64,000 bases of DNA. Source: Cyprinodon diabolis. Lineage: Eukaryota > Chordata > Actinopteri > Cyprinodontiformes > Cyprinodontidae. The notes below the pieces were generated by a model. The model saw nothing but the letters and a program-made list of their open reading frames with translations, searched no databases and was not told where the DNA came from. A program made the position numbers and the translations under genes. Position 1 is the first letter of the stretch. Each line of letters starts with the position of its first letter. The DNA is taken from contig CM060078.1 in assembly GCA_030533445.1 (NCBI GenBank), forward strand, positions 22,983,591 through 23,047,590. The letters run 5' to 3'. Shown here piece after piece: positions 10,193-57,553 of the stretch.

Positions 10193-11047
10193 TTAGCATG
10201 TGCATTCGACAGGAGTGATAGTAAAACTATCAGGTGCATAAATGATATGATAAAGAAAGAAGGGGTAGATCTTTGGTCTGTATACAGGTGAACGTCCTAT
10301 AAGAGAGTAAAGCAAACCTTGCACTCCTGTTTTTGTCTCCGTAAAGCAGCATTCTGTTAAGGAGTGTAACAGGGTCCTGGAATTGGTGTCATAGAAGGAA
10401 ACTTCTCCCTTCTCGTAATCTACAAACACACCAATTTTTTCAATGTTCTCTTGAAACAATGACCCAAACCATAGACAGGCTCCATGATCAGGTGAGAAAG
10501 GAATGTCTCTGTTAACTGATTCTTTAACTACTCCCAAGATCAAGTGTTGACTGCTGGTGACTACCACTTCATAGTAGAACCGTCCTGAATTAAAACCTTC
10601 ATTTGCCAATACAGCGCAACATCTTTTAAATTGCGATGGCAAAACAGGGAACCATTGCTCACACCGTCTAAAGCTCAGTGTCTTCCCATCTGCAGATACA
10701 GTAAAAGCAGGGTGTGCGCTATAGGAGTTTAACGTCACATTAACTGCATTGCATTGCTGAATCATCATGAGCCTGTCCTTCGGTGGACGCCACACGTCTT
10801 GGACAGAATTTCCCATCCTTATGTTTTCATCCTCATCTGACTGTTCAGGTAAGTCACTGAAATCAGATGACCTTACCTTATTAATCAGCATATCTACCTC
10901 CTTAATGACTCTCTCTTTAATCTGAGCCACTGACTGTTTCACTATCTTTACATTGGTGGGCTGTTCAGTAAGTTGATCAATCTGATAAGTGTTCTCGGGT
11001 ATTTGTTTGAACTGACAGCTCTGCAGCAGGTAGAGGTAGTCTTCTGA
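10193..11047 (-). CDS. TRIM-type protein, terminal PRY-SPRY (B30.2) exon, partial
   Basis: A 285-codon open frame runs from a possible AG acceptor (plus strand 11048-11049) to a stop at 10193. It begins SEDYLYLLQSCQF, a block typical of the end of the coiled coil of fish TRIM E3 ligases. A linker follows with a short helix (SVAQIKERVIKEVDMLINKV). The PRY segment is VTLNSYSAHPAFTVSADG. The SPRY segment shows SGRFYYEVVV, LGVVKESVNR, CLWFG, KIGVFVDYEKGEVSFYDT and a final YPFF. B30.2 domains bind targets, and in TRIMs they direct RING-dependent ubiquitin transfer. The RING, B-box and most of the coiled coil would be 5' (higher coordinates), but that side is occupied by a transposon from 11053 on, and no earlier exon was found. 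It is either a gene with a very long intron or an orphan exon. No in-frame stop is present. AATAAA on the minus strand at 9092-9097 could end its 3' UTR. Confidence 0.75.
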   Translation of the reverse strand, partial: SEDYLYLLQSCQFKQIPENTYQIDQLTEQPTNVKIVKQSVAQIKERVIKEVDMLINKVRSSDFSDLPEQSDEDENIRMGNSVQDVWRPPKDRLMMIQQCNAVNVTLNSYSAHPAFTVSADGKTLSFRRCEQWFPVLPSQFKRCCAVLANEGFNSGRFYYEVVVTSSQHLILGVVKESVNRDIPFSPDHGACLWFGSLFQENIEKIGVFVDYEKGEVSFYDTNSRTLLHSLTECCFTETKTGVQGLLYSLIGRSPVYRPKIYPFFLYHIIYAPDSFTITPVECTC

Positions 11048-11083
11048 CTGTCATAGGTGGATTAATGACCGGGCCTACCGGGC

Positions 11084-12133
11084 CCAGGCCCAGGGGGCCA
11101 GAGGCCCCAAGGGGCCAGGCCAACTTGGCCCCGCGGCCACGATCCATAGAGGGTAAGAGGCCCCAAGGGGCCATGATCCATAGAGGGTAAGAGGCCCCAA
11201 GGGGCCAGGTCAACTTGGCCCCGCGGCCACGACCCACAGAGGGCCTGAGGTCGTAAGGGGTCAGGCCAACTTGGCCCCGCGGCCATGATCCATAGAGGGT
11301 AAGAGGCCCCAAGGGGTCAGGCCAACATGGCCCCGCGGCCATTATCCATAGACAGTCAGAGGCCCCAAGGGGCCAGGCCAACTTGGCCCAGCGGCCACGA
11401 TCCATAGAGGGTCAGAGGCCCCAGGGGGCCAGGTCAACTTGGCCCCGCGGCCACGATCCATAGACGGTCAGAGGCCCCAAGGGGCCAGGCCAACTTGGCC
11501 CCGCGGCCACGACCCACAGAAGGCCAGAGGCCCCAAAGGGCCAGGCCAACTTGGCCCCGCGGCCGCAAGCCACAGAAGGCCAGAGGCCCCAAGGGGCCAG
11601 GTCAACTTGGCCCCGCTGCCACGACCCACAGAGGGCCTGAGGTCCTAAGGGGTCAGGCCAACTTGGCCCCGCGGCCATGATCCATAGAGGGTAAGAGGCC
11701 CCAAGGGGTCAGGCCAACATGGCCCCGCGGCCACGATCCATAGACGGTCAGAGGCCCCAAGGGGCCAGGCCAACTTGGCCCCGCGGCCACGACCCACAGA
11801 AGGCCAGAGGCCCCATAGGGCCAGGCCAACTTGGCCCCGTGGCCGCAAGCCACAGAAGGCCAGAGGCCCCAAGGGGCCAGGTCAACTTGGCCCCGCGGCC
11901 ACGACCCACAGAGGGCCTGAGGTCCTAAGGGGTCAGGCCAACTTGGCCCCGCGGCCATGATCCATAGAGGGCCAGAGGCCCCGAGGGGTCAGGCCAACTT
12001 GGCCCCGATCCATAGAGGGTCAGAGGCCCCAAGGGGCCAGGCCAACTTGGCCCCGCGGCCACGACCCACAGAGGCCCCAAGGGGCCAGGCAAAATTGGCC
12101 CCGCGGCCATGATCCACAGAGGGCCAGAGGCTC
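11084..12133. repeat. 56-bp GC-rich minisatellite, ~19 units, 280-bp higher-order period
   Basis: The unit contains GGCCCCAAGGGGCC, GGCCAACTTGGCC and CCGCGGCC, followed by 'acgatccatagagggtcaga'. It is about 56 bp and repeats about 19 times with substitutions. A block of five variant units recurs at 280 bp (about 11433-11712 against 11713-11992), including the variants 'gcaagccacagaagg' and 'gaggtcctaaggggtcagg'. Each unit has two self-complementary stretches able to form hairpins. The unit resembles the subterminal sequence of the transposon ends at 11060 and 17450, so it probably grew from there. Long open frames on both strands are by-products of the composition. 56 is not a multiple of 3, so no codon-periodic protein repeat is favoured. 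Confidence 0.9.
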
Positions 12134-13561: not shown

Positions 13562-16093
13562 AAAAAAATTCAGCAAGAAAAGAAAAAAAAGGAATCAGTT
13601 TTACTTGAGAGTGTTCCAAATATCTCCAGCTTCTTCAGTACAAAGACATCTGCTGAAAGCAATTCTATAAATGCTACTGCAAATTCAGCTAAGGTTAGCA
13701 ATGCACCTGAGCTAGCATGTAGCTCCCAAGATCCTGAGACCACTACAAGTGTAGACACTGAACCAAATGCTTCTGATGCTTATGATTCAACCAATTCAGC
13801 AGTAGCCAGTTGCTCGGATGAATGTGAGGTCACTGCACCTCTGGACAGCATAGAAAATGAGCTGAATCTTTCTTCAACACCATCTACAGTGACAACTCTA
13901 CCTAGTGATCCCGCTAAATGGGCTGAGACCCTCACTGAGTCAATGACGGAAGTTCTTATTCAAAGAGGTGCAAAATCATTTCACAACCGTCACAGCCATT
14001 ATCCAGCTTCTGTGAGGAACAGTGGGCTAGGAGGCAAAACCCGATGCCTAAACAATGAACATTTTACTTCACACTTGCCCAATGGACAACGAGTACAAAG
14101 AGAGTGGCTGATGTACTCTCCCTCTACTGGTAATGTTTACTGCTTTGCATGCAAACTGTTTTCCCCAAAAACGCATTCTTTTGTGACAGGCTATTGTGAT
14201 TGGAAACACTCAGAAAGATTTGGTGAACATGAGCGAAGTGCTGAGCACATAACCTGCATGCAAGCAGTCTTGAACCGCGCCAAAGGTGCCACAGTTGATG
14301 CAGACCTGTTCAAACAGTTTCAGGCAGAGAGCAGCTATTGGAGGCAGGTGTTACAAAGAGTTGTTGCAGTCATTAAATTCCTTGCAGAAAGGGGCCTTGC
14401 ATTTAGGGGTAAAAATGAATCGTTAGGGTCTCCTCTCAATGGGAACTACCTTGGTATTCTGGAGGTCCTGGCTGAATTTGATCCCTTTCTAAAGGATCAC
14501 ATCAGAAAGTTTGGGCAGATGGGTCGAGGTAATACCTCATATCTGTCCTCCACCATTTGTGAGGAATTCATTGAATTGATGGGTGCAAAAACCAAACAGG
14601 CTATAGCAGATGAACTGCAAGCAAGTAAATACTACTCTATCATTGTGGATTCAACCCCAGATTTATCTCATGTGGACCAATTGACCTTCATATTCCGTTT
14701 TGTTAGCAAAGAGGGCAGTGTTGTTGAACGCTTTGTGGGTTTTGAGCCCATTACTAGCCATACAGGTGAAAGTTTGGCTAACTGTGTCATGTCTGTGTTG
14801 GAAAATCTAGGGTTAGAGCTGTCAAATTGCAGGGGGCAGGCTTATGATAATGCCAGCAACATGGCAGGGAGGTATAATGGGTTGCAGGCTCACTTAAAGA
14901 AAAGCAACCCATTAATACACTATATTCCATGTGCAGCTCACTCTTTGAATTTGGTGGGAGTCAACAGCATTGACAGATGTGGAAATGAAGTCTCTAAGTA
15001 TTTTGACTTGATTCAGTCTATTTACAACTTCACAACTGCATCCACACACCGATGGGACAGGGCATTTGGCAATTCCAACATAGATCTCACACTTAAAGCT
15101 TTATCCAACACGCGTTGGAGTTGCTGTGCAGAATCTACCAAAGCACTGTGGCAGAACTACAGTAAAATAAAAGCAGCATTACAGGTTATTTCCACTGATG
15201 ACACACAGAAACGAGACACACAAACTGAAGCTGACAGTCTAGTGCGGAAGCTGGATTCACTTGAGATGGCCTTCATGGCAGGCTTTTGGGACACTGTTCT
15301 GTCCAGATTTCAGGCCACAAGTCTGCAACTTCAAAAAGCAGACATGGACCTTGGTACAGCAGTTAGATTGCTGCAATCTCTGCGCACCTTTGTTCTCTCC
15401 CAAAGAGATCTATTTAATCATTTTGAGCAGAAAGCCTTAAACATGTTGGGTGGCACCCCATCTTACAGGGCTGAACGGATGAGGAAACGTAAAAAGTTTG
15501 CTGATGAATCAGCATCCCCAGATGTTGTGCTTGAGGGAAGGCAACTGTTTCAAATAGAGACATTTATTGCCTCTATTGATCAACTGAGTTCAAGCCTTAA
15601 TCACCGTCTGGAGGCCTACAAACATCTGAACAATTTGTTCAGTGTCCTTTTCTCTTTGGATACAGAGTCCAATGCTTCAGTCCTTCACAAGGCCAAGATT
15701 ATCACTGAATCATACCCATCTGACCTCAATGAAAGTCTTGGACAGGAGCTTATACAGTTCAAATCTTTTATACAGCTCAACAACACTGATGAGGAGAGGA
15801 CCCCTTCAGGACTGCTCAAAACAATAATACATTTTGGACTACAACCTACGTTTCCTAATACATACATTGCGCTACAGATTTTTCTCACTCTACCGGTCAG
15901 TAACTGTGAGGGAGAACGCTCATTCTCTCTTTTGTCAAGAGTAAAAAATGAGCTGCGCACAAGAATGACTCAGAAAAGATTAAATGCGTTATCTCTAATG
16001 GCAATTGAGAGTGAGCTGACAAGAGAGTTGGACTTCAATGATGTGGTGGATGATTTTGCAAAATTGAAAGCACGAAAGAAACCCCTTGCTTAA
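13562..16093 (+). CDS. hAT transposase, ZMYM1-like (TTF zinc finger, DUF4371, hATC dimerisation)
   Basis: A long intact frame; the stretch from the GTG at 13889 alone gives 734 residues. Numbered from there, a TTF-type zinc finger lies at about 70-125 (REWLMYSPSTGNVYCFACKLF, Cys85 and Cys88). The RNase H-like catalytic domain follows: Asp254 in IIVDSTPD, Asp320 in GQAYDNASNMAG, and the conserved C-x2-H in IPCAAHSLNLV (348-351). The C-terminal dimerisation domain is at about 671-710 (SNCEGERSFSLLSRVKNEL). This is the architecture of ZMYM1-like proteins and hAT transposases, which cut and paste DNA at 8-bp targets. The frame is open upstream to 13562. An ATG at 13530 in another frame gives MDHKRLSGGARKKF, the usual opening of this family. 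Joining the two needs a one-base slip in the A8 run at 13583-13590. The stop TAA lies inside the TTAA where a MITE inserted. Catalytic residues look intact, so decay is recent. Confidence 0.88.
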   Translation, partial: KKIQQEKKKKESVLLESVPNISSFFSTKTSAESNSINATANSAKVSNAPELACSSQDPETTTSVDTEPNASDAYDSTNSAVASCSDECEVTAPLDSIENELNLSSTPSTVTTLPSDPAKWAETLTESMTEVLIQRGAKSFHNRHSHYPASVRNSGLGGKTRCLNNEHFTSHLPNGQRVQREWLMYSPSTGNVYCFACKLFSPKTHSFVTGYCDWKHSERFGEHERSAEHITCMQAVLNRAKGATVDADLFKQFQAESSYWRQVLQRVVAVIKFLAERGLAFRGKNESLGSPLNGNYLGILEVLAEFDPFLKDHIRKFGQMGRGNTSYLSSTICEEFIELMGAKTKQAIADELQASKYYSIIVDSTPDLSHVDQLTFIFRFVSKEGSVVERFVGFEPITSHTGESLANCVMSVLENLGLELSNCRGQAYDNASNMAGRYNGLQAHLKKSNPLIHYIPCAAHSLNLVGVNSIDRCGNEVSKYFDLIQSIYNFTTASTHRWDRAFGNSNIDLTLKALSNTRWSCCAESTKALWQNYSKIKAALQVISTDDTQKRDTQTEADSLVRKLDSLEMAFMAGFWDTVLSRFQATSLQLQKADMDLGTAVRLLQSLRTFVLSQRDLFNHFEQKALNMLGGTPSYRAERMRKRKKFADESASPDVVLEGRQLFQIETFIASIDQLSSSLNHRLEAYKHLNNLFSVLFSLDTESNASVLHKAKIITESYPSDLNESLGQELIQFKSFIQLNNTDEERTPSGLLKTIIHFGLQPTFPNTYIALQIFLTLPVSNCEGERSFSLLSRVKNELRTRMTQKRLNALSLMAIESELTRELDFNDVVDDFAKLKARKKPLA

Positions 16094-20110: not shown

Positions 20111-20116
20111 TTTATT
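20111..20116 (-). terminator. Poly(A) signal AATAAA for terminal exon 4d
   Basis: AATAAA on the minus strand, about 80 nt downstream of the stop of the last ninj2 terminal exon. This fits a short 3' UTR. Comparable signals lie about 190 nt after exon 4b (22809-22814) and about 335 nt after exon 4c (20666-20671). None was seen close behind exon 4a. Confidence 0.45.
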
Positions 20117-20195: not shown

Positions 20196-20359
20196 TCAAT
20201 GTATGCGCATCATCAGCCATGGGAAGTATCCAGTCCGCTGCATGCCAAACGTGCTGATGAAGCAGTTGAGAACCGTTGTGATGAAGACTATGATGGTTGT
20301 TACATTGTTAAGGTAGTCCAGACGCCTTTGGAGAGTGGAGTTGTTCAGATCTCGACGGC
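20196..20359 (-). CDS. ninj2: Ninjurin-2-like, alternative terminal exon 4d
   Basis: 164 nt: two bases completing a split codon, 53 codons and TGA. The acceptor is 'tgcatttgcatgtag' (AG at 20360-20361). The protein reads RRDLNNSTLQRRLDYLNN, then the second membrane helix TTIIVFITTVLNCFISTFG, then MQRTGYFPWLMMRIH. This matches the C-terminal exon of NINJ2 (linker, LNN motif, helix, FG-x-x-[KR]-TG tail). It is the most distal of four tandem versions. The splice phase (1) equals that of the exon 3 donor, so direct joining keeps the frame. Ninjurins oligomerise in the plasma membrane and drive membrane rupture or cell adhesion; this exon supplies the second transmembrane segment. Confidence 0.85.
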
Positions 20360-21001
20360 CTACATGCAAATGCACAGTGCACAACAGACAAACACACAAA
20401 CAAAGGCTGTATCATATTTTCCTTCATAAATCAATAATGACCAAAAATATTAAAGAGAAAAACACACTTTATTTAATCCTTTTCACATGCAAATTGCAGT
20501 TTAAGGACAAATCAGGTTCTTTTTCAAACTATTTGCTTTATTCAGGATCCTGGAGGTAAAAGTTTAAAGATATTAACTGTGATTTCTCACTAATGCAGAA
20601 CCCAATAAAGCATTGCTTTTGAATTTAATCTTATTTTTAAGTTAGCTTATATTTAAGTAAAGGCATTTATTAAAACATTATAATCAAAAGATAATAGATG
20701 CAACCTTTGTATAAAAGTCTAAAAACTATGAAAGTCACACATTTTTTATATTTAAGCAAAGCAGAGAACCACAAATGCATTTGTAAAAATATAAATGTTT
20801 TAGATGGATTACAGTTTTCATTTACAAAGCTTGATAAAAAGAAAGATTCAATAAATAGAATTGTCCATGTATTTGCCTGAACTTCGTCCCAACTCGCCAA
20901 TCAAGGTGTTCATTTAATATAAAACATCAATGCTGGAGAGAAGTTTTCTTGATGGCTGAACTATCAGCGAACATAAGATTGAGTTTGCAGCCTTGTTCGA
21001 G

Positions 21002-21168
21002 TCAGAAGTGGAGTCTAGCCAGCAGCCAGCGGAAGAAGCCCGTCCTCTTGGATCCGAAGAAACTAACAAAGAAGTTGACCATAGTTGTGGCAAAGATGAC
21101 GCCTGTGGTGAGGTTATTCAGGTAGTCGAGTCGCTTCTGATTGGACACCACATTCAGGTCCCTGCGGG
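21002..21168 (-). CDS. ninj2: Ninjurin-2-like, alternative terminal exon 4c
   Basis: 167 nt: two bases, 54 codons and TGA, preceded by the acceptor 'gtgcatgttgtag'. The protein reads RRDLNVVSNQKRLDYLNN, helix LTTGVIFATTMVNFFVSFFG, tail SKRTGFFRWLLARLHF. It shares RRDLN and RLDYLNN with exon 4d. Of the four it looks closest to canonical NINJ2 (glycine in the helix start, TGF tail). No stop or frameshift is present, which argues for selection. Confidence 0.87.
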
Positions 21169-21609
21169 CTACAACATGCACGCACACACATGCAGACACA
21201 GCAAACAATTTCCCACATTACCATCAAACACACACACGCATACAGTTGATGCTTACATCCACGCTATCAGCTTTTCCATACAATCATACAATTCACTCAC
21301 ACACCCCTCAAGCCTGCTTTGTCAAATTGATATTTAAACAGGACAGAATAAACTCTATTGTTTCCCAGTGGTATACTGTGGAGGAGTATGGTGTCTTAAG
21401 ATCCTGTGCAGAAATTCAACAATTAAAATTAAAATTAAAATAGTGGTGCTAATTGATATTAATGTGATTAAAGATATAGAACTTTGAATCAGACAATCCC
21501 TTGAACATTAAACCTACGGCTAATTGATTTTGTTGACATTTTTGCATGTTCAACTAATTGCTCGGCTCGTTAGTCAATTCTGGTACTATTTTCTTGGTTA
21601 GAAGCTGAA

Positions 21610-22480
21610 AAGCTAGAAGCTGACTGGACACACAACACTGAGGCTATGTATAAGAAAGGTCGGAGCAGACGCTTCCTGCCAGAGATGGGAAATGTCGTGT
21701 CAACAAGTCATCTCCATGTCGTGTATTTAATCTACCCAACCAATTAACCAGGTGAGTCCAATCTGCACAGGTTGATTCACAGTAAAGATTAGACTTACCT
21801 GCTTCAGTGGGTGGATAGAACAAATACATGAAATGGAGATAACTTGTTAACTCCACATTTCCCATCTCTGCTTCCTACTGAGGGGACTGTGTCTTTTGCA
21901 GACGGGGCTCCTAAAGATCTTCTATGACTGTTGTAGCATCAGCCATCTTCTATGGAGTTGTCTGTTGGAACGGTTACTTATCTATAGCTATATTAACATC
22001 TCTGTTGGATAATGTCACCCACCCCATGCATGAAGCTTTTGCAGAACTGGAGAGCTCCTTCAGTGACAGACTGCTGCACCCTAAATGCACCAGGGAGCGT
22101 TATCACAGATCCTTCCTCCCAGCAGCTGGAAGACTTTATAACCAACAACGTAAATATGTTGTTACATTCATGCTGATTTTGCACAGTTTCTATCTTAGTC
22201 AGGTAAATAACATGCTGCTCATCTCTGGTGATGCTACTATTTTTTAAATATTCATTACTGTAAAAATTTCCATAGCTGTATATTGGTTATTTATACTCCA
22301 GGTGCAGTTTTTACATTGTTAAAAAACTTTATAGTACAGTGTTTTATTTGTTTATTTTTAACTCTTTACTATTATGTTCTAAGGTCCATATTTGTGTGAC
22401 AATTTTTTCTATAATCTTTTTGCAGCTGTAAACACCAGAATTTCCCCATTGTGGGACAATAAAGGGAATACCTTGGTGTA
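21610..22480 (+). mobile_element. CR1/L2/Rex1-type LINE 3' end, carrying a nested MITE
   Basis: The plus-strand relic encodes FYDCCSISHLLW-like and then VVASAIFYGVVCWNG, HEAFAELESSFSDRLLHPKC and RSFLPAAGRLYN, the end of a LINE reverse-transcriptase ORF. A 3' UTR follows, ending 'attgtgggacaataaag'. It is split by the hAT MITE at 21680-21870. It lies antisense in the ninj2 intron between terminal exons 4b and 4c. Frameshifts show it is dead. Confidence 0.7.
21680..21870. mobile_element. hAT MITE, 191 bp, nested in LINE
   Basis: The terminal inverted repeats are CAGAGATGGGAAATGTCGTG and, from the right, CAGAGATGGGAAATGTGGAG; similarity continues into 'tcaacaagtcatctccatg'/'ttaacaagttatctccat'. 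Flanking octamers CTTCCTGC (21672-21679) and CTTCCTAC (21871-21878) match at 7 of 8. Removing it restores continuous LINE sequence. Confidence 0.88.
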
Positions 22481-22999
22481 ATGAGGCACAATCCTGCTTT
22501 TGTGTGGAAAAGTTGAATAATTAATATTTCAAAATATCAAATTCCTGGATCTATTACATTTATGTGCAAGGACTTAAACTGCATTGAAAATAAAAATAAA
22601 AAACAAGCATCCTTTGTATAAAGTTATCTCAATTGTATTGTTCAGATTTATATGAGTGTGGCCGTGAGATGTTTTTATAAGATGTGCAGTTTAGCAAATG
22701 CATTTGAAAAAGAATCACTTAGCTTTGAATTTAGAATATTGAGGAGGTTATTTTAAATAAAATACTTAAAATTGTTAGAAAGTGAGCCAAACTCTAGCAC
22801 TGAACCCTTTTATTTTTTTGAACAAAAAGAAGAAAAATAACCCTAAATGAATGTTTTATATCACATCTATATCAATAAGAGTGAAATCTGTACCTCAAAT
22901 GTAGTCTTTAAGAAACACTGTCATTTTGTATTACCTGTTTACTGGTAGTTTAATTTTAATATTCCTATAGATTAATAAGCATACTGCATGTCAGCTAAG

Positions 23000-23169
23000 T
23001 TATGCAATAAAGCGGTGAAACAGCCACCGCAGAAGGCAGCTGCGTTGTGTTCCGAATGCAGCTTTGATGATGTTTATAAGGAGAGTGAGGAAGATGATGC
23101 CGGTGATCAGATTGTTCAGGAAGTTCAAACATCGGCGGCAGGAGGGAAGGGGTCTCAGCTCAAAACGAG
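23000..23169 (-). CDS. ninj2: Ninjurin-2-like, alternative terminal exon 4b (most divergent)
   Basis: 170 nt: two bases, 55 codons and TAA, preceded by the acceptor 'gtgtgtctgaacag'. The protein reads RFELRPLPSCRRCLNFLNN, helix LITGIIFLTLLINIIKAAFG, tail TQRSCLLRWLFHRFIA. The LNN motif, helix length and FG-x-[QK]-R turn are kept, but the RDLN motif is altered (RFEL), a lysine lies in the distal helix, and the tail is cysteine-containing. The frame is open and the splice phase kept, so it may be functional with changed properties. It could also be an early pseudo-exon. Confidence 0.72.
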
Positions 23170-23425
23170 CTGTTCAGACACACACATTCATATTCACACA
23201 CATCAATAACACACGCAGGCAACAGACACACACATCCAGATGAGCATAACACAAGCACACAGACAACAGGATGGAGACAGACACATAGCCAGTTGGTCCT
23301 TTGCCCCAGTCCACTCACCCATAATGAAATAAAACGTGTTATTAGGTGATTAGAAATGTAAGTTATACTCATTTATGTGTCTGATCAGATGTATTAAATG
23401 AGATCTGTTGGCATAAAACTGAAAG

Positions 23426-23580
23426 TCAGAAGTGCATCCTGGCAAAGAGGCCGGTGCGTTCCATCCCAAGTACAGAAATAAAGATGTTGGTGATGAAGAT
23501 GAGGAAGATAGCGAGGGTTGCTTTGTTGTTCAAGCTGTCCAGGGGCTTCTGGTTGGCTTCTTCATTCAAATCCCGCTGGG
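23426..23580 (-). CDS. ninj2: Ninjurin-2-like, alternative terminal exon 4a (proximal)
   Basis: 155 nt: two bases, 50 codons and TGA, preceded by the strong acceptor 'tgatcaatgtgttgcag'. The protein reads QRDLNEEANQKPLDSLNN, helix KATLAIFLIFITNIFISVLG, tail MERTGLFARMHF. It is the version nearest to exon 3 and has the shortest tail. A lysine replaces the usual hydrophobic residue just after LNN. No AATAAA was seen within the 250 nt before exon 4b, so its transcripts may use a variant signal. Confidence 0.85.
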
Positions 23581-23759
23581 CTGCAACACATTGATCAATG
23601 CACACACAAAAAAATAACACAATGCAAGAGAAAAACATACATTTTTTACCAAGAATTGACAAAAAGCCTATGTGTGAATGGGTTAATGTGTTAATATGGT
23701 TAATAAAACAAAGAGATCTAAAAAGAAGGTCAAAATGAAGTATTTTGCTAAATGCTCAC

Positions 23760-23839
23760 CAATTATAATAATCAGGACACCGGCGATGATCTGAAGAGCC
23801 AGGGAGAAGGAGATGAGCGTCAGCACAGCTGCATAGTAC
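23760..23839 (-). CDS. ninj2: Ninjurin-2-like exon 3, first membrane helix
   Basis: 80 nt between the acceptor 'ttttggttctcag' and donor G|GTGAGCA. It completes the split arginine codon from exon 2 and encodes YYAAVLTLISFSLALQ and IIAGVLIIII, ending one base into the next codon. This is the first transmembrane helix of the ninjurin family. The single leftover base (G) fits the two-base starts of all four terminal exons, giving Ala or Gly at the junction. Confidence 0.88.
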
Positions 23840-23985
23840 CTGAGAACCAAAACATTACAAATCTGTGAAAAATCACTACTGATGCAAAAAAAAAGATCCT
23901 TTTGCAGGAAACTCATCTGTAAGCACAGAATTTCCTAAGCAACACTTAAAAAATTTTAATGTTTTGTAACTTTTCTGCAGCATAC

Positions 23986-24122
23986 CGATATCCAGCTCCT
24001 TGTTCAATAACAGTCTTCATGTGTGTGATATTTGCCAGGAATAGAGCGATGTCCAGCATCCCTTCAGCTGCTGTCTTTTTGGTGGCGTAAAGGTTCATAT
24101 TGACATTAGGGATGGAACCTCC
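23986..24122 (-). CDS. ninj2: Ninjurin-2-like exon 2, amphipathic N-terminal region
   Basis: 137 nt between the acceptor 'gtttgtgtttcag' and donor CG|GTATGC. It encodes GGSIPNVNMNLYATKKTAAE, GMLDIALFLANITHMKTVIE and QGAGY plus two bases. N-x-[NH]-x-YA[ST]KK[ST]-x-AE-x-MLD-x-AL-x-x-AN is the family signature and includes the Lys and Asp of the kinked amphipathic helices needed for filament assembly in NINJ1. It starts in phase 0, matching the proposed exon 1 donor at 54582. Confidence 0.9.
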
Positions 24123-54581: not shown

Positions 54582-54680
54582 CTGCAGAGGGCCGCTGGCT
54601 GGCATGGTTGACCTCATTGATGCCAAGTCGATGTCGCGGCCCTGCTCTCCTCTCTCCGTCTTCCCCAGTCCCTGCATCAT
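54582..54680 (-). CDS. ninj2: Ninjurin-2-like proposed exon 1 (start codon)
   Basis: From ATG at 54680 the minus strand gives 33 codons, MMQGLGKTERGEQGRDIDLA then SMRSTMPASGPLQ, ending at the donor CTGCAG|GTAGGG in phase 0. An in-frame TGA lies 18 nt before the ATG, which supports this start. Exon 2 starts in phase 0 and lacks an initiator. Joining them gives a product of about 156-161 residues, close to human NINJ2 (142) and NINJ1 (152). The charged, disordered leader ending before the Y-A-T-K-K block resembles other ninjurins. The link across 30 kb is inferred from phase, length and composition only. It could instead belong to another gene. Confidence 0.55.
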
Positions 54681-55443
54681 CAGGCCTGCAGCGAGCGGTC
54701 ACAAATTCGAATAAAATATTGTGTTGCTCACACAGTAGCCGTAGTGGTTATGTGAAGATGGTGGTGGCAGTTATGAAAAGGCGACGCACTGGATGCTAGG
54801 CACTGAGCATCAAGTAAAACCAAAGAGGACAACAGAGGGACAAACAAATGGCTTATTCAGCCCGTCCTGGTCTCCTCCTCTCATGGAGTCACCCTACTTG
54901 TTCCGCACTCTGTCATCCACCATGTTCTAGATATAATGTAGGTTTGAAAACTTTAAGAACAAAAAAAAAGTTTTTCAAAGAATGGACATTCAAAATTACC
55001 AACACTGAATGAAAGATTTTATATTATAAAGCTAGTGTGAAGCTGCTGAGAGAAAGTGAGCAGAACTTTAAAGCCTCATGCATTTAATAACATACATTTG
55101 AAATAAAAAGTCCAATAATAGCATGTTTCAAATAGATACAGAAAACCGAATAGGGCAGTGCAGATATTCTAAGATTAAAAAACGGAAGCTGCAAAAAGGA
55201 CACAAAAATACATGATCTTTTGCTCTAACTGCATAGAAAAGACTTGTTAGAAAATAGGAGGTAATTAAGTGGTAAATGTATTGGTTGCAGGAGAGTCAGT
55301 ATTAATCATTGCTCAGCAACGTCTGTCCATCACCCTGGGACTGGGGATCTCCATAGAAACCACCAGTTGTCCTATGCTTATTCTAATTTTTTTTTCCAAA
55401 CTCATGCCAACTTCTTGGTCATTGACTTGGCAACAACTATTAA

Positions 55444-55656
55444 AGGTATAGTGGAGGATGTTCTTTTATGAGCAATGCAAACAGTAACTCTTAAACAGAG
55501 CGTGCACGAGGAGAAATGGGCTTGTGCATGCTCTCACATGCTTTAAAAGGCGTTTTCTCTCGTTAGTAGTTACAGGGTTATATGCATGTGAATTTTTCTT
55601 TAAAGGTGGAGAAGGTGGGACTTTTCAAAAATTCACAAAAATCCTCCACGATACCT
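55444..55656. mobile_element. TTAA-target MITE, 213 bp, copy in unit 1
   Basis: TTAA at 55440-55443 and 55657-55660 flanks terminal inverted repeats AGGTATAGTGGAGGAT and (from the right) AGGTATCGTGGAGGAT. TTAA targets are used by piggyBac and Kolobok; the AGG start fits Kolobok better. No coding capacity. Confidence 0.8.
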
Positions 55657-56582
55657 TTAAGGAAACAATGCAATGGCTGCTTGTTAGATACCAGACAACA
55701 TTAATCTATATTGCTGATAATTAGATATGCTGTAAAGTTTAGCAGCATCCATTAACTTGGGTAATAAATGAATTGCTATTTGAATGTTCTTATTGCTACA
55801 AATAATATTGATACAACATCCACTATTGGTCTGGATGTCATTAGGTCAGATACTGCCTTCCATTACTCTCACAGTAGCCGTAGTGGTTATGTGAAGATGG
55901 TGGTGGCAGTTATGAAAAGGCGACGCACTGGATGCTAGGCACTGAGCATCAAGTAAAACCAAAGAGGACAACAGAGGGACAAACAAATGGCTTATTCAGC
56001 CCGTCCTGGTCTCCTCCTCTCATGGAGTCACCCTACTTGTTCCGCACTCTGTCATCCACCATGTTCTAGATATAATGTAGGTTTGAAAACTTTAAGAACA
56101 AAAAAAAAGTTTTTCAAAGAATGGACATTCAAAATTACCAACACTGAATGAAAGATTTTATATTATAAAGCTAGTGTGAAGCTGCTGAGAGAAAGTGAGC
56201 AGAACTTTAAAGCCTCATGCATTTAATAACATACATTTGAAATAAAAAGTCCAATAATAGCATGTTTCAAATAGATACAGAAAACCGAATAGGGCAGTGC
56301 AGATATTCTAAGATTAAAAAACGGAAGCTGCAAAAAGGACACAAAAATACATGATCTTTTGCTCTAACTGCATAGAAAAGACTTGTTAGAAAATAGGAGG
56401 TAATTAAGTGGTAAATGTATTGGTTGCAGGAGAGTCAGTATTAATCATTGCTCAGCAACGTCTGTCCATCACCCTGGGACTGGGGATCTCCATAGAAACC
56501 ACCAGTTGTCCTATGCTTATTCTAATTTTTTTTTCCAAACTCATGCCAACTTCTTGGTCATTGACTTGGCAACAACTATTAA

Positions 56583-56795
56583 AGGTATAGTGGAGGATGT
56601 TCTTTTATGAGCAATGCAAACAGTAACTCTTAAACAGAGCGTGCACGAGGAGAAATGGGCTTGTGCATGCTCTCACATGCTTTAAAAGGCGTTTTCTCTC
56701 GTTAGTAGTTACAGGGTTATATGCATGTGAATTTTTCTTTAAAGGTGGAGAAGGTGGGACTTTTCAAAAATTCACAAAAATCCTCCACGATACCT
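56583..56795. mobile_element. TTAA-target MITE, 213 bp, copy in unit 2
   Basis: Identical copy of 55444-55656, moved by the tandem duplication and not by transposition, since its surroundings are duplicated with it. Confidence 0.8.
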
Positions 56796-57553
56796 TTAAG
56801 GAAACAATGCAATGGCTGCTTGTTAGATACCAGACAACATTAATCTATATTGCTGATAATTAGATATGCTGTAAAGTTTAGCAGCATCCATTAACTTGGG
56901 TAATAAATGAATTGCTATTTGAATGTTCTTATTGCTACAAATAATATTGATACAACATCCACTATTGGTCTGGATGTCATTAGGTCAGATACTGCCTTCC
57001 ATTACTCTCACAGTAGCCGTAGTGGTTATGTGAAGATGGTGGTGGCAGTTATGAAAAGGAGACGCACTGGATGCTAGGCACTGAGCATCAAGTAAAACCA
57101 AAGAGGACAACAGAGGGACAAACAAATGGCTTATTCAGCCCGTCCTGGTCTCCTCCTCTCATGGAGTCACCCTACTTGTTCCGCACTCTGTCATCCACCA
57201 TGTTCTAGATATAATGTAGGTTTGAAAACTTTAAGAACAAAAAAAAAGTTTTTCAAAGAATGGACATTCAAAATTACCAACACTGAATGAAAGATTTTAT
57301 ATTATAAAGCTAGTGGGAAGCTGCTGAGAGAAAGTGAGCAGAACTTTAAAGCCTCATGCATGTAATAACATACATTTGAAATAAAAAGTCCAATAATAGC
57401 ATGTTTCAAATAGATACAGAAAACCGAATAGGGCAGTGCAGATATTCTAAGATTAAAAAACTTTTTTTGTATAAATCTACTTGATGGAAGAATCCCAGCT
57501 GTAAGCAACTAAAATTTGGAAATACATTTTTTTTTTAAACTAACTGACCAGAC

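What the first reader, a model, noticed from the sequence alone, without database searches (positions are those of the whole stretch)
20196..24122. Ninjurin-2-like gene with four tandem alternative terminal exons
Exons 2 and 3 are single, but four separate exons for the C-terminal half follow in tandem (23426-23580, 23000-23169, 21002-21168, 20196-20359). Every one has an AG acceptor, begins with two bases that complete the same split codon, keeps the LNN motif and a 20-residue membrane helix, and ends in its own stop. The helices and tails differ: KATLAIFLIFITNIF, LITGIIFLTLLINII, LTTGVIFATTMVNFF and TTIIVFITTVLNCF. Intact frames and conserved phase argue for selection. Ninjurins assemble into membrane-rupturing filaments through these helices, so swapping the second helix and tail could give isoforms that mix, block or tune rupture and adhesion. 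Mammalian NINJ1 and NINJ2, as I know them, have one such exon, and I know of no description of this arrangement.
Basis: partly seen in the sequence, partly recalled or inferred. Interest (0 to 1): 0.92.

Follow-up and report, generated by a model that had tools for sequence, protein, structure and literature searches.

The report
One ninjurin gene, four swappable endings
A pupfish gene for a ninjurin, the family of membrane proteins whose member NINJ1 tears dying cells open, carries four different tandem end-pieces that recur in predicted proteins of many bony fishes and differ at residues reported to affect membrane rupture in human ninjurins, so alternative splicing likely lets one gene make isoforms predicted to differ in how readily they rupture membranes.

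Summary
On the minus strand, exons 2 (24122-23986) and 3 (23839-23760) of a ninj2-type gene are followed by four homologous terminal exons (a, b, c, d), each with an AG acceptor, the same phase and its own stop. I add exon 1 at 54680-54582, behind a 30-kb intron. It is one gene: in 71 of 72 species listed with two or more exon classes, the classes share an identical core. Classes a, b and d are single branches of a tree of terminal halves; c is too but for one Aplochiton sequence. The swap replaces helix alpha4 and the tail. The two alpha4 columns that separate the classes best, 117 and 138 (NINJ1 numbering), are published NINJ1/NINJ2 function sites: a S/V, b F/A as in NINJ1, c Y/F, d Y/T. NCBI pipelines already predict these isoforms; seven paper searches, three with capped listings, showed no description. 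Use of all four ends in one animal and any effect on rupture are untested here; the one transcript-like item is a 925-base contig encoding exons 1-2-3-d. I predict that b is rupture-competent and a, c and d are not.

The parts
54582..54680 (-). coding exon 1 (MMQGLGKTERGEQGRDIDLASMRSTMPASGPLQ), donor CAG|GTAGGG
   Evidence: tblastn of fish ninjurin-2 N-termini; boundaries read
23986..24122 (-). exon 2, shared; covers helices alpha1-alpha2 by alignment to NINJ1
   Evidence: phase 0 after exon 1
23760..23839 (-). exon 3, shared; covers helix alpha3 by alignment, ends with the first base of a split codon
   Evidence: boundary equals NINJ1 residue 101/102
23426..23580 (-). terminal exon a (S117, I134, V138; tail GMERTGLFARMHF)
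   Evidence: Cyprinodon variegatus isoform X4 99%
23000..23169 (-). terminal exon b (F117, I134, A138, as in NINJ1; tail GTQRSCLLRWLFHRFIA)
   Evidence: Cyprinodon tularosa isoform X1 99%
21002..21168 (-). terminal exon c (Y117, F134, F138; tail GSKRTGFFRWLLARLHF)
   Evidence: Cyprinodon variegatus isoform X2 99%
20196..20359 (-). terminal exon d (Y117, C134, T138; tail GMQRTGYFPWLMMRIH)
   Evidence: same end in Cyprinodon variegatus isoform X3, P0086
22949..22960 (-). two ATTAAA poly(A)-type hexamers from 40 nt after the stop of b (AATAAA also at 22814-22809); none between a and b
20913..20918 (-). ATTAAA 84 nt after the stop of c (AATAAA at 20671-20666)
20111..20116 (-). AATAAA 80 nt after the stop of d
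21175..21194 (-). two TGCATG (RBFOX-type hexamer, name recalled) within 26 nt before the acceptor of c; a third at 20368-20363 before d
   Evidence: a consensus match only

Best explanation
This is a single ninj2-type gene of a pupfish (Cyprinodon or close kin) in which exons 1-3 are followed by four tandem, in-frame terminal exons, and it likely makes four ninjurin isoforms by alternative splicing that share helices alpha1-alpha3 and differ in helix alpha4 and tail. SHOWN: the exon anatomy, common phase and stops; recurrence of each exon class in predicted proteins of other fishes; a junction near the end of alpha3, so that the NINJ1 function sites K45, D53, I84, Q91 and G95 fall in the shared exons while 117, 121, 123, 134 and 138 fall in the swapped ones. 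INFERRED: all isoforms can enter one filament through the shared helices, and the alpha4 supplied by the chosen exon sets filament curvature and stability, hence whether the assembly ruptures membrane. PREDICTED roles: b (F117, L121, T123, I134, A138 in the window copy, all five as in human NINJ1) rupture-competent; c (Y117, F134, F138) and d (Y117, F/C134, T138) impaired on their own and modifiers of mixed filaments; a (S117, V138) a polar-117, NINJ2-like, non-rupturing form. INFERRED choice: one donor competes for four acceptors; a and b may share a poly(A) site, c and d have their own.
For: Anatomy. One gene: residues 42-101 identical between classes in 71 of 72 species; the exception, Lates, differs only by an optional YR at the exon 2/3 junction. 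Separate, conserved classes: 275 of 276 terminal halves are closer to their own window copy than to any other (mean identity to own copy a 78, b 73, c 89, d 93%; mean best other copy 42-60%); on the tree a, b, d are single branches (SH-aLRT 97, 97, 96) and c (82) has one sequence astray. Class residues: 117 = S 104/119 in a, F 31/37 in b, Y 81/86 in c, Y 34/34 in d; 134 = I 105/119, I 31/37, F 81/86, F 25/34; 138 = V 118/119, A 33/37, F 83/86, T 34/34. Meaning of these sites: Gln103 of NINJ2 versus Phe117 of NINJ1 is reported to govern cholesterol binding and filament distortion (PMC12547243, passages); I134F and A138L are among eight NINJ1 mutants that reduced or abolished lysis and reduced filaments, and other mutants changed rupture when mixed with wild type (PMC10307626, passages). 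Expression: P0100, a 158-residue class-d protein, is listed on a 925-base contig, too short for an unspliced locus like this one of 34 kb; it is spliced RNA or a retrocopy.
Against: No junction reads: nearly all isoforms are automated predictions, and decayed exon copies would not be annotated, so the protein sets are biased towards intact ones; they are also the best 120 of about 400 hits ranked by similarity. Overall alpha4 similarity to NINJ1 is no higher in b (13 of 25) than in a (13), c (12) or d (13), though b is least like NINJ2 (10 against 12-14). b matching all five sites has hypergeometric p 0.024, not corrected for four classes, and the sites were chosen by me. b carries K136 in 84% of sequences, which NINJ1 lacks. 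Grafting the NINJ1 N-terminal 30 residues onto NINJ2 was enough for rupture (PMC12547243), and that region is shared by all four isoforms here. The NINJ1 mutants reported as dominant-negative (K45Q, D53A, Q91A) lie in the shared exons, while alpha4 mutants L121F, L121W and T123L added rupture in mixtures, so blocking by c or d has no direct precedent there. F134 in c sits in a different background. Three database models (P0001, P0005, P0277) join two terminal exons, against strict one-of-four use. Both AlphaFold models were poor (pTM 0.28).
Confidence: 0.6

Rival explanations
1. Same gene and four alternative ends, but the ends tune adhesion, trafficking or localisation (for example in myelin or neurons) through tail and loop, with no bearing on membrane rupture; NINJ2-type proteins are non-lytic whatever their alpha4.
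For: Tail columns 141 and 142 are also class-diagnostic. Human NINJ2 is reported not to rupture membranes (PMC12547243, passages). NINJ2 is named among zebrafish CNS myelin proteins (PMC8060510, passages).
Against: The only two class-diagnostic columns in alpha4, 117 and 138, are both among the five published function sites that I considered (p 0.033, post hoc).
Confidence: 0.31
2. One end is the main product and the other three are rarely used leftovers of exon duplication.
For: No transcript counts were available; 70 of 142 species labels list only one class.
Against: Each class shows 73-93% mean identity to the window copy over 34-119 sequences, and 72 of 142 labels list two or more. Listings were capped at 120 of about 400, so absence from a list is not loss. 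Caveat: decayed copies would not be listed.
Confidence: 0.08
3. Four separate ninjurin genes, collapsed or mis-joined by assembly.
For: The copies are as divergent as paralogous genes (40-58% identity).
Against: No second copy of exon 1, 2 or 3 found in the window; identical cores between classes in 71 of 72 species; isoforms of this kind are predicted from many assemblies.
Confidence: 0.01

Closest known systems
Human NINJ1 (PDB 8cqr, 8sza, 8uip, 9bia) and NINJ2 (8szb)
   Same: Same family; aligned without gaps over residues 36-143; same K45, D53, Q91, G95.
   Different: Known to me as single products with one alpha4 each (recalled; human splice forms not tested); here four alpha4/tail modules follow one set of upstream exons.
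Fish ninjurin-2(-like) isoforms predicted by NCBI pipelines
   Same: These are the orthologous isoforms; Cyprinodon entries for a, b and c are 98-99% identical, and the d end of P0086 reads the same as the window's.
   Different: Automated models; my searches showed no paper that describes the array, its classes, its age or the function-site pattern.
Tandem duplicated, mutually exclusive exons (PMC9013439, PMC9741552; search listing and abstract starts only)
   Same: Homologous tandem exons in one phase, one presumably used at a time.
   Different: Those are typically internal exons (recalled); these are terminal, with their own stops, so choice is tied to transcript ending.
Gasdermin B splice isoforms (PMC12547243, passages)
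   Same: Alternative splicing changes the activity of a cell-lysis protein.
   Different: There splicing alters a linker; here it would swap a whole membrane helix.

Membership tests
Ninjurin family (Pfam PF04923) | Matches the family profile above the curated cut-off | tested here: met
   Four of four exon 2-3-4 combinations score 110-121 bits against a cut-off of 26; exon b alone gave no hit and exon a alone 22.8 bits, below the cut-off; c and d alone were not tried
Ninjurin family (Pfam PF04923) | Filament residues K45, D53, Q91, G95 | tested here: met
   Invariant in 276 of 276 sequences
NINJ2 orthologue (rather than NINJ1) | Sequence closer to NINJ2 | tested here: inconclusive
   119 versus 107 bits, but core identity is 35 of 66 to each; F57 and V/I93 NINJ2-like, A47 NINJ1-like in 255 of 276, H63 neither
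NINJ2 orthologue (rather than NINJ1) | Conserved neighbouring genes | tested here: inconclusive
   19 of the 261 listed ORFs scanned; only a transposase and a PRY/SPRY exon matched
Tandem alternative terminal exons | Homologous exons, same phase, one upstream donor, own stops | tested here: met
Tandem alternative terminal exons | Two or more used in transcripts of one animal | not testable with these tools
   No RNA reads available; predictions of two or more classes in 72 of 142 species labels and one 925-base contig
Membrane-rupturing ninjurin | Filament formation and cell lysis | not testable with these tools
   needs experiments

The most novel reading that the evidence does not exclude
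A splice-operated rupture switch: fishes with this array encode a rupture-competent ninjurin (exon b) and its own built-in modifiers or blockers (exons a, c, d) in one gene, so a cell sets how easily its membrane tears by choosing the last exon, and mixed filaments give graded rupture.
Probability: 0.22. Interest if true: 0.88.

Novelty: new variant of a known kind. Interest (0 to 1): 0.65.

Why it matters
Why NINJ1 ruptures membranes and NINJ2 does not has been studied mainly with mutants of mammalian proteins (reviews and passages). Here evolution has run a controlled swap: four natural alpha4 modules on one constant scaffold, kept apart across many euteleost fishes and differing at residues that the mammalian work singled out. 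Expressing four constructs would test which alpha4 features allow rupture, and whether fishes could regulate lytic cell death by splicing.

Tried and rejected
Rejected: separate genes (no second exon 1-3 found in the window; identical cores); chance frames; a new family.

Led nowhere: AlphaFold models of a b and an a isoform (P0240, P0121; pTM 0.28 each, from alignments of 43 and 47 of the 279 proteins) and a Foldseek PDB search with the b model (0 matches at E <= 0.001, no NINJ entry among the 11 listed): uninformative, not evidence against the fold. dN/dS between c and d: dN 0.35, dS not computable; no DNA of other species was at hand. Neighbouring genes for orthology. I saw no zebrafish or other non-euteleost name among the 279 listed proteins, and the listings were capped at the best 120 of 404, 404 and 401 hits, so an origin before the euteleosts was not tested.

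Weak leads kept as leads: TG-rich 100 nt before all four acceptors (TGTG counts 5, 13, 8, 4; resampling p 0.003) and TGCATG before c and d (p 0.0003), both from one genome and tested after being seen.

Literature: seven searches (terms around ninjurin or ninj2 with zebrafish, teleost, fish, splicing, tandem or terminal exons) listed 3 of 3, 5 of 5, 15 of 15, 20 of 74, 20 of 358, 20 of 24 and 0 papers; none of the listed titles or abstract starts concerns this array. I read passages only, from PMC8060510, PMC12547243, PMC11664169, PMC10307626, PMC5037682, PMC13208015 and PMC13144334. Most subscription papers are not held; the Cell 2025 paper on NINJ2 was not held and is known here only through the reviews.

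Full report
Observation. On the minus strand, exon 2 (24122-23986) and exon 3 (23839-23760) encode the first half of a ninjurin; four terminal exons follow at 23580-23426 (a), 23169-23000 (b), 21168-21002 (c) and 20359-20196 (d). Each follows AG, restores the frame after the exon 3 donor and ends in a stop; every combination matches PF04923. I found no fifth copy and no second exon 2 or 3 in the window.

Species and prior annotation. The a, b and c isoforms are 98-99% identical to predicted ninjurin-2 isoforms of Cyprinodon variegatus and C. tularosa, and the d end of C. variegatus X3 (P0086) reads the same as the window's, so the window is from a pupfish or close kin. NCBI pipelines predict such isoforms in many fishes. 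The array is therefore in databases; what my seven paper searches did not show is any description of it.

One gene, old array. I sorted the 279 listed proteins by terminal exon: a 119, b 38, c 87, d 35. After dropping three double-exon models and two non-species labels, 142 species labels remain; 72 list two or more classes, 19 three or more, and two all four (Cyprinodon tularosa, Lates calcarifer); 35 list b, of which 19 also list c or d. These are lower bounds, because each listing showed the best 120 of about 400. In 71 of the 72, the classes share an identical core (residues 42-101), and in 62 of 72 everything up to the junction: exons of one gene, not paralogous genes. Of 276 terminal halves, 275 are closer to their own window copy than to another. 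On a quick tree of 214 terminal halves (55 columns, SH-aLRT only), a, b and d are single branches (97, 97, 96); c (82) is too but for P0278 of Aplochiton. Myripristis lists a, b and c; Gadus morhua a and c, with b in G. macrocephalus; Aplochiton an a, two c-like ends and one between b and c; Lepidogalaxias b. Class d is not listed for these fishes, so d may be younger or simply unlisted. Lineages place Lepidogalaxias, Aplochiton, Gadus and Cyprinodon all in Euteleosteomorpha, so a, b and c ends likely go back to early euteleosts. An earlier origin was not tested. Caution: these are annotated proteins ranked by similarity, so decayed copies would be missed.

What is swapped. The junction equals NINJ1 residue 101/102, two residues before the end of alpha3 (79-103; PMC10307626, passages). 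Everything after it, the loop, alpha4 (114-138) and tail, is exchanged. K45, D53, Q91 and G95 are constant in 276 of 276 and I84 in 272. Of 25 alpha4 columns only 117 and 138 have at least three different class consensus residues, each in over 80% of its class. Position 117 is F in NINJ1 and Q (Gln103) in NINJ2, the residue reported to govern cholesterol binding and filament distortion (PMC12547243, passages): S in a (104/119), F in b (31/37), Y in c (81/86), Y in d (34/34). Position 138, where A138L reduces or abolishes NINJ1 lysis: V (118/119), A (33/37), F (83/86), T (34/34). Position 134, where I134F does the same: I in a (105/119) and b (31/37), F in c (81/86), F (25/34) or C (8/34) in d. 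So the b consensus has the NINJ1 residue at 117, 121, 123, 134 and 138, while c carries F134, the very substitution that impaired NINJ1. Overall alpha4 similarity to NINJ1 does not differ (12-13 of 25 in all classes), and b is least like NINJ2 (10 against 12-14). The statistics are modest and post hoc (p 0.024 and 0.033). Hence the functional reading is a sharp prediction, not a result.

Transcripts and choice of end. No reads could be counted. One protein of unnamed source, P0100, encodes exons 1-2-3-d on a 925-base contig, which fits spliced RNA or a retrocopy. I recall, but did not check, that the Nothobranchius kadleci UniRef entries for classes c and a (P0045, P0206) come from transcriptome data. 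Poly(A)-type hexamers follow b, c and d within 40-84 nt, but none lies between a and b, so a and b may share one. The four acceptors have 9-11 pyrimidines in 20 and TG-rich upstream tracts, against 13 and 16 for exons 3 and 2 without such tracts; c and d have TGCATG within 26 nt. These suggest regulated acceptors but come from one genome.

Mechanism. Because alpha1-alpha3 are constant, any isoform should be able to join the same filament; the chosen alpha4 would then set its shape. In human cells, three NINJ1 mutants (K45Q, D53A, Q91A) were dominant-negative and three alpha4 mutants (L121F, L121W, T123L) added rupture when mixed with wild type (PMC10307626, passages), so mixed assemblies are a plausible rheostat; but the blocking mutants lie in what are shared exons here, so blocking by c or d has no direct precedent. 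A further threat is the report that the N-terminal 30 residues can decide rupture (PMC12547243); they are shared here, so all isoforms might be alike in that respect.

Verdict. The anatomy and the recurrence of the classes are solid; alternative use is likely; the rupture switch is a testable proposal.

Noticed in passing
54724-57301: Three copies of a 300-nt stretch (99% alike) spaced 1139 nt, a tandem repeat starting 44 nt 5' of the ninj2 start codon: promoter variation or assembly artefact.
   Followed up: partly
13562-16093 (+): 843-codon open frame with DUF4371 and hAT dimerisation domains, a hAT-type transposase.
   Followed up: partly
10193-11050 (-) and 11169-12131: PRY/SPRY exon beside a 56-bp minisatellite of 17.5 copies.
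   Followed up: no
21799 (-): A strong donor-like CAG|GTAAGT between exons b and c with no exon assigned.
   Followed up: no
P0001, P0005, P0277: Database models that join two terminal exons (c+d, b+c, a+b), from Mugilogobius, Doryrhamphus and Arctogadus: prediction errors or real double-end forms.
   Followed up: partly
Lates calcarifer isoforms: Isoforms with and without an extra YR at the exon 2/3 junction, perhaps alternative donors.
   Followed up: no
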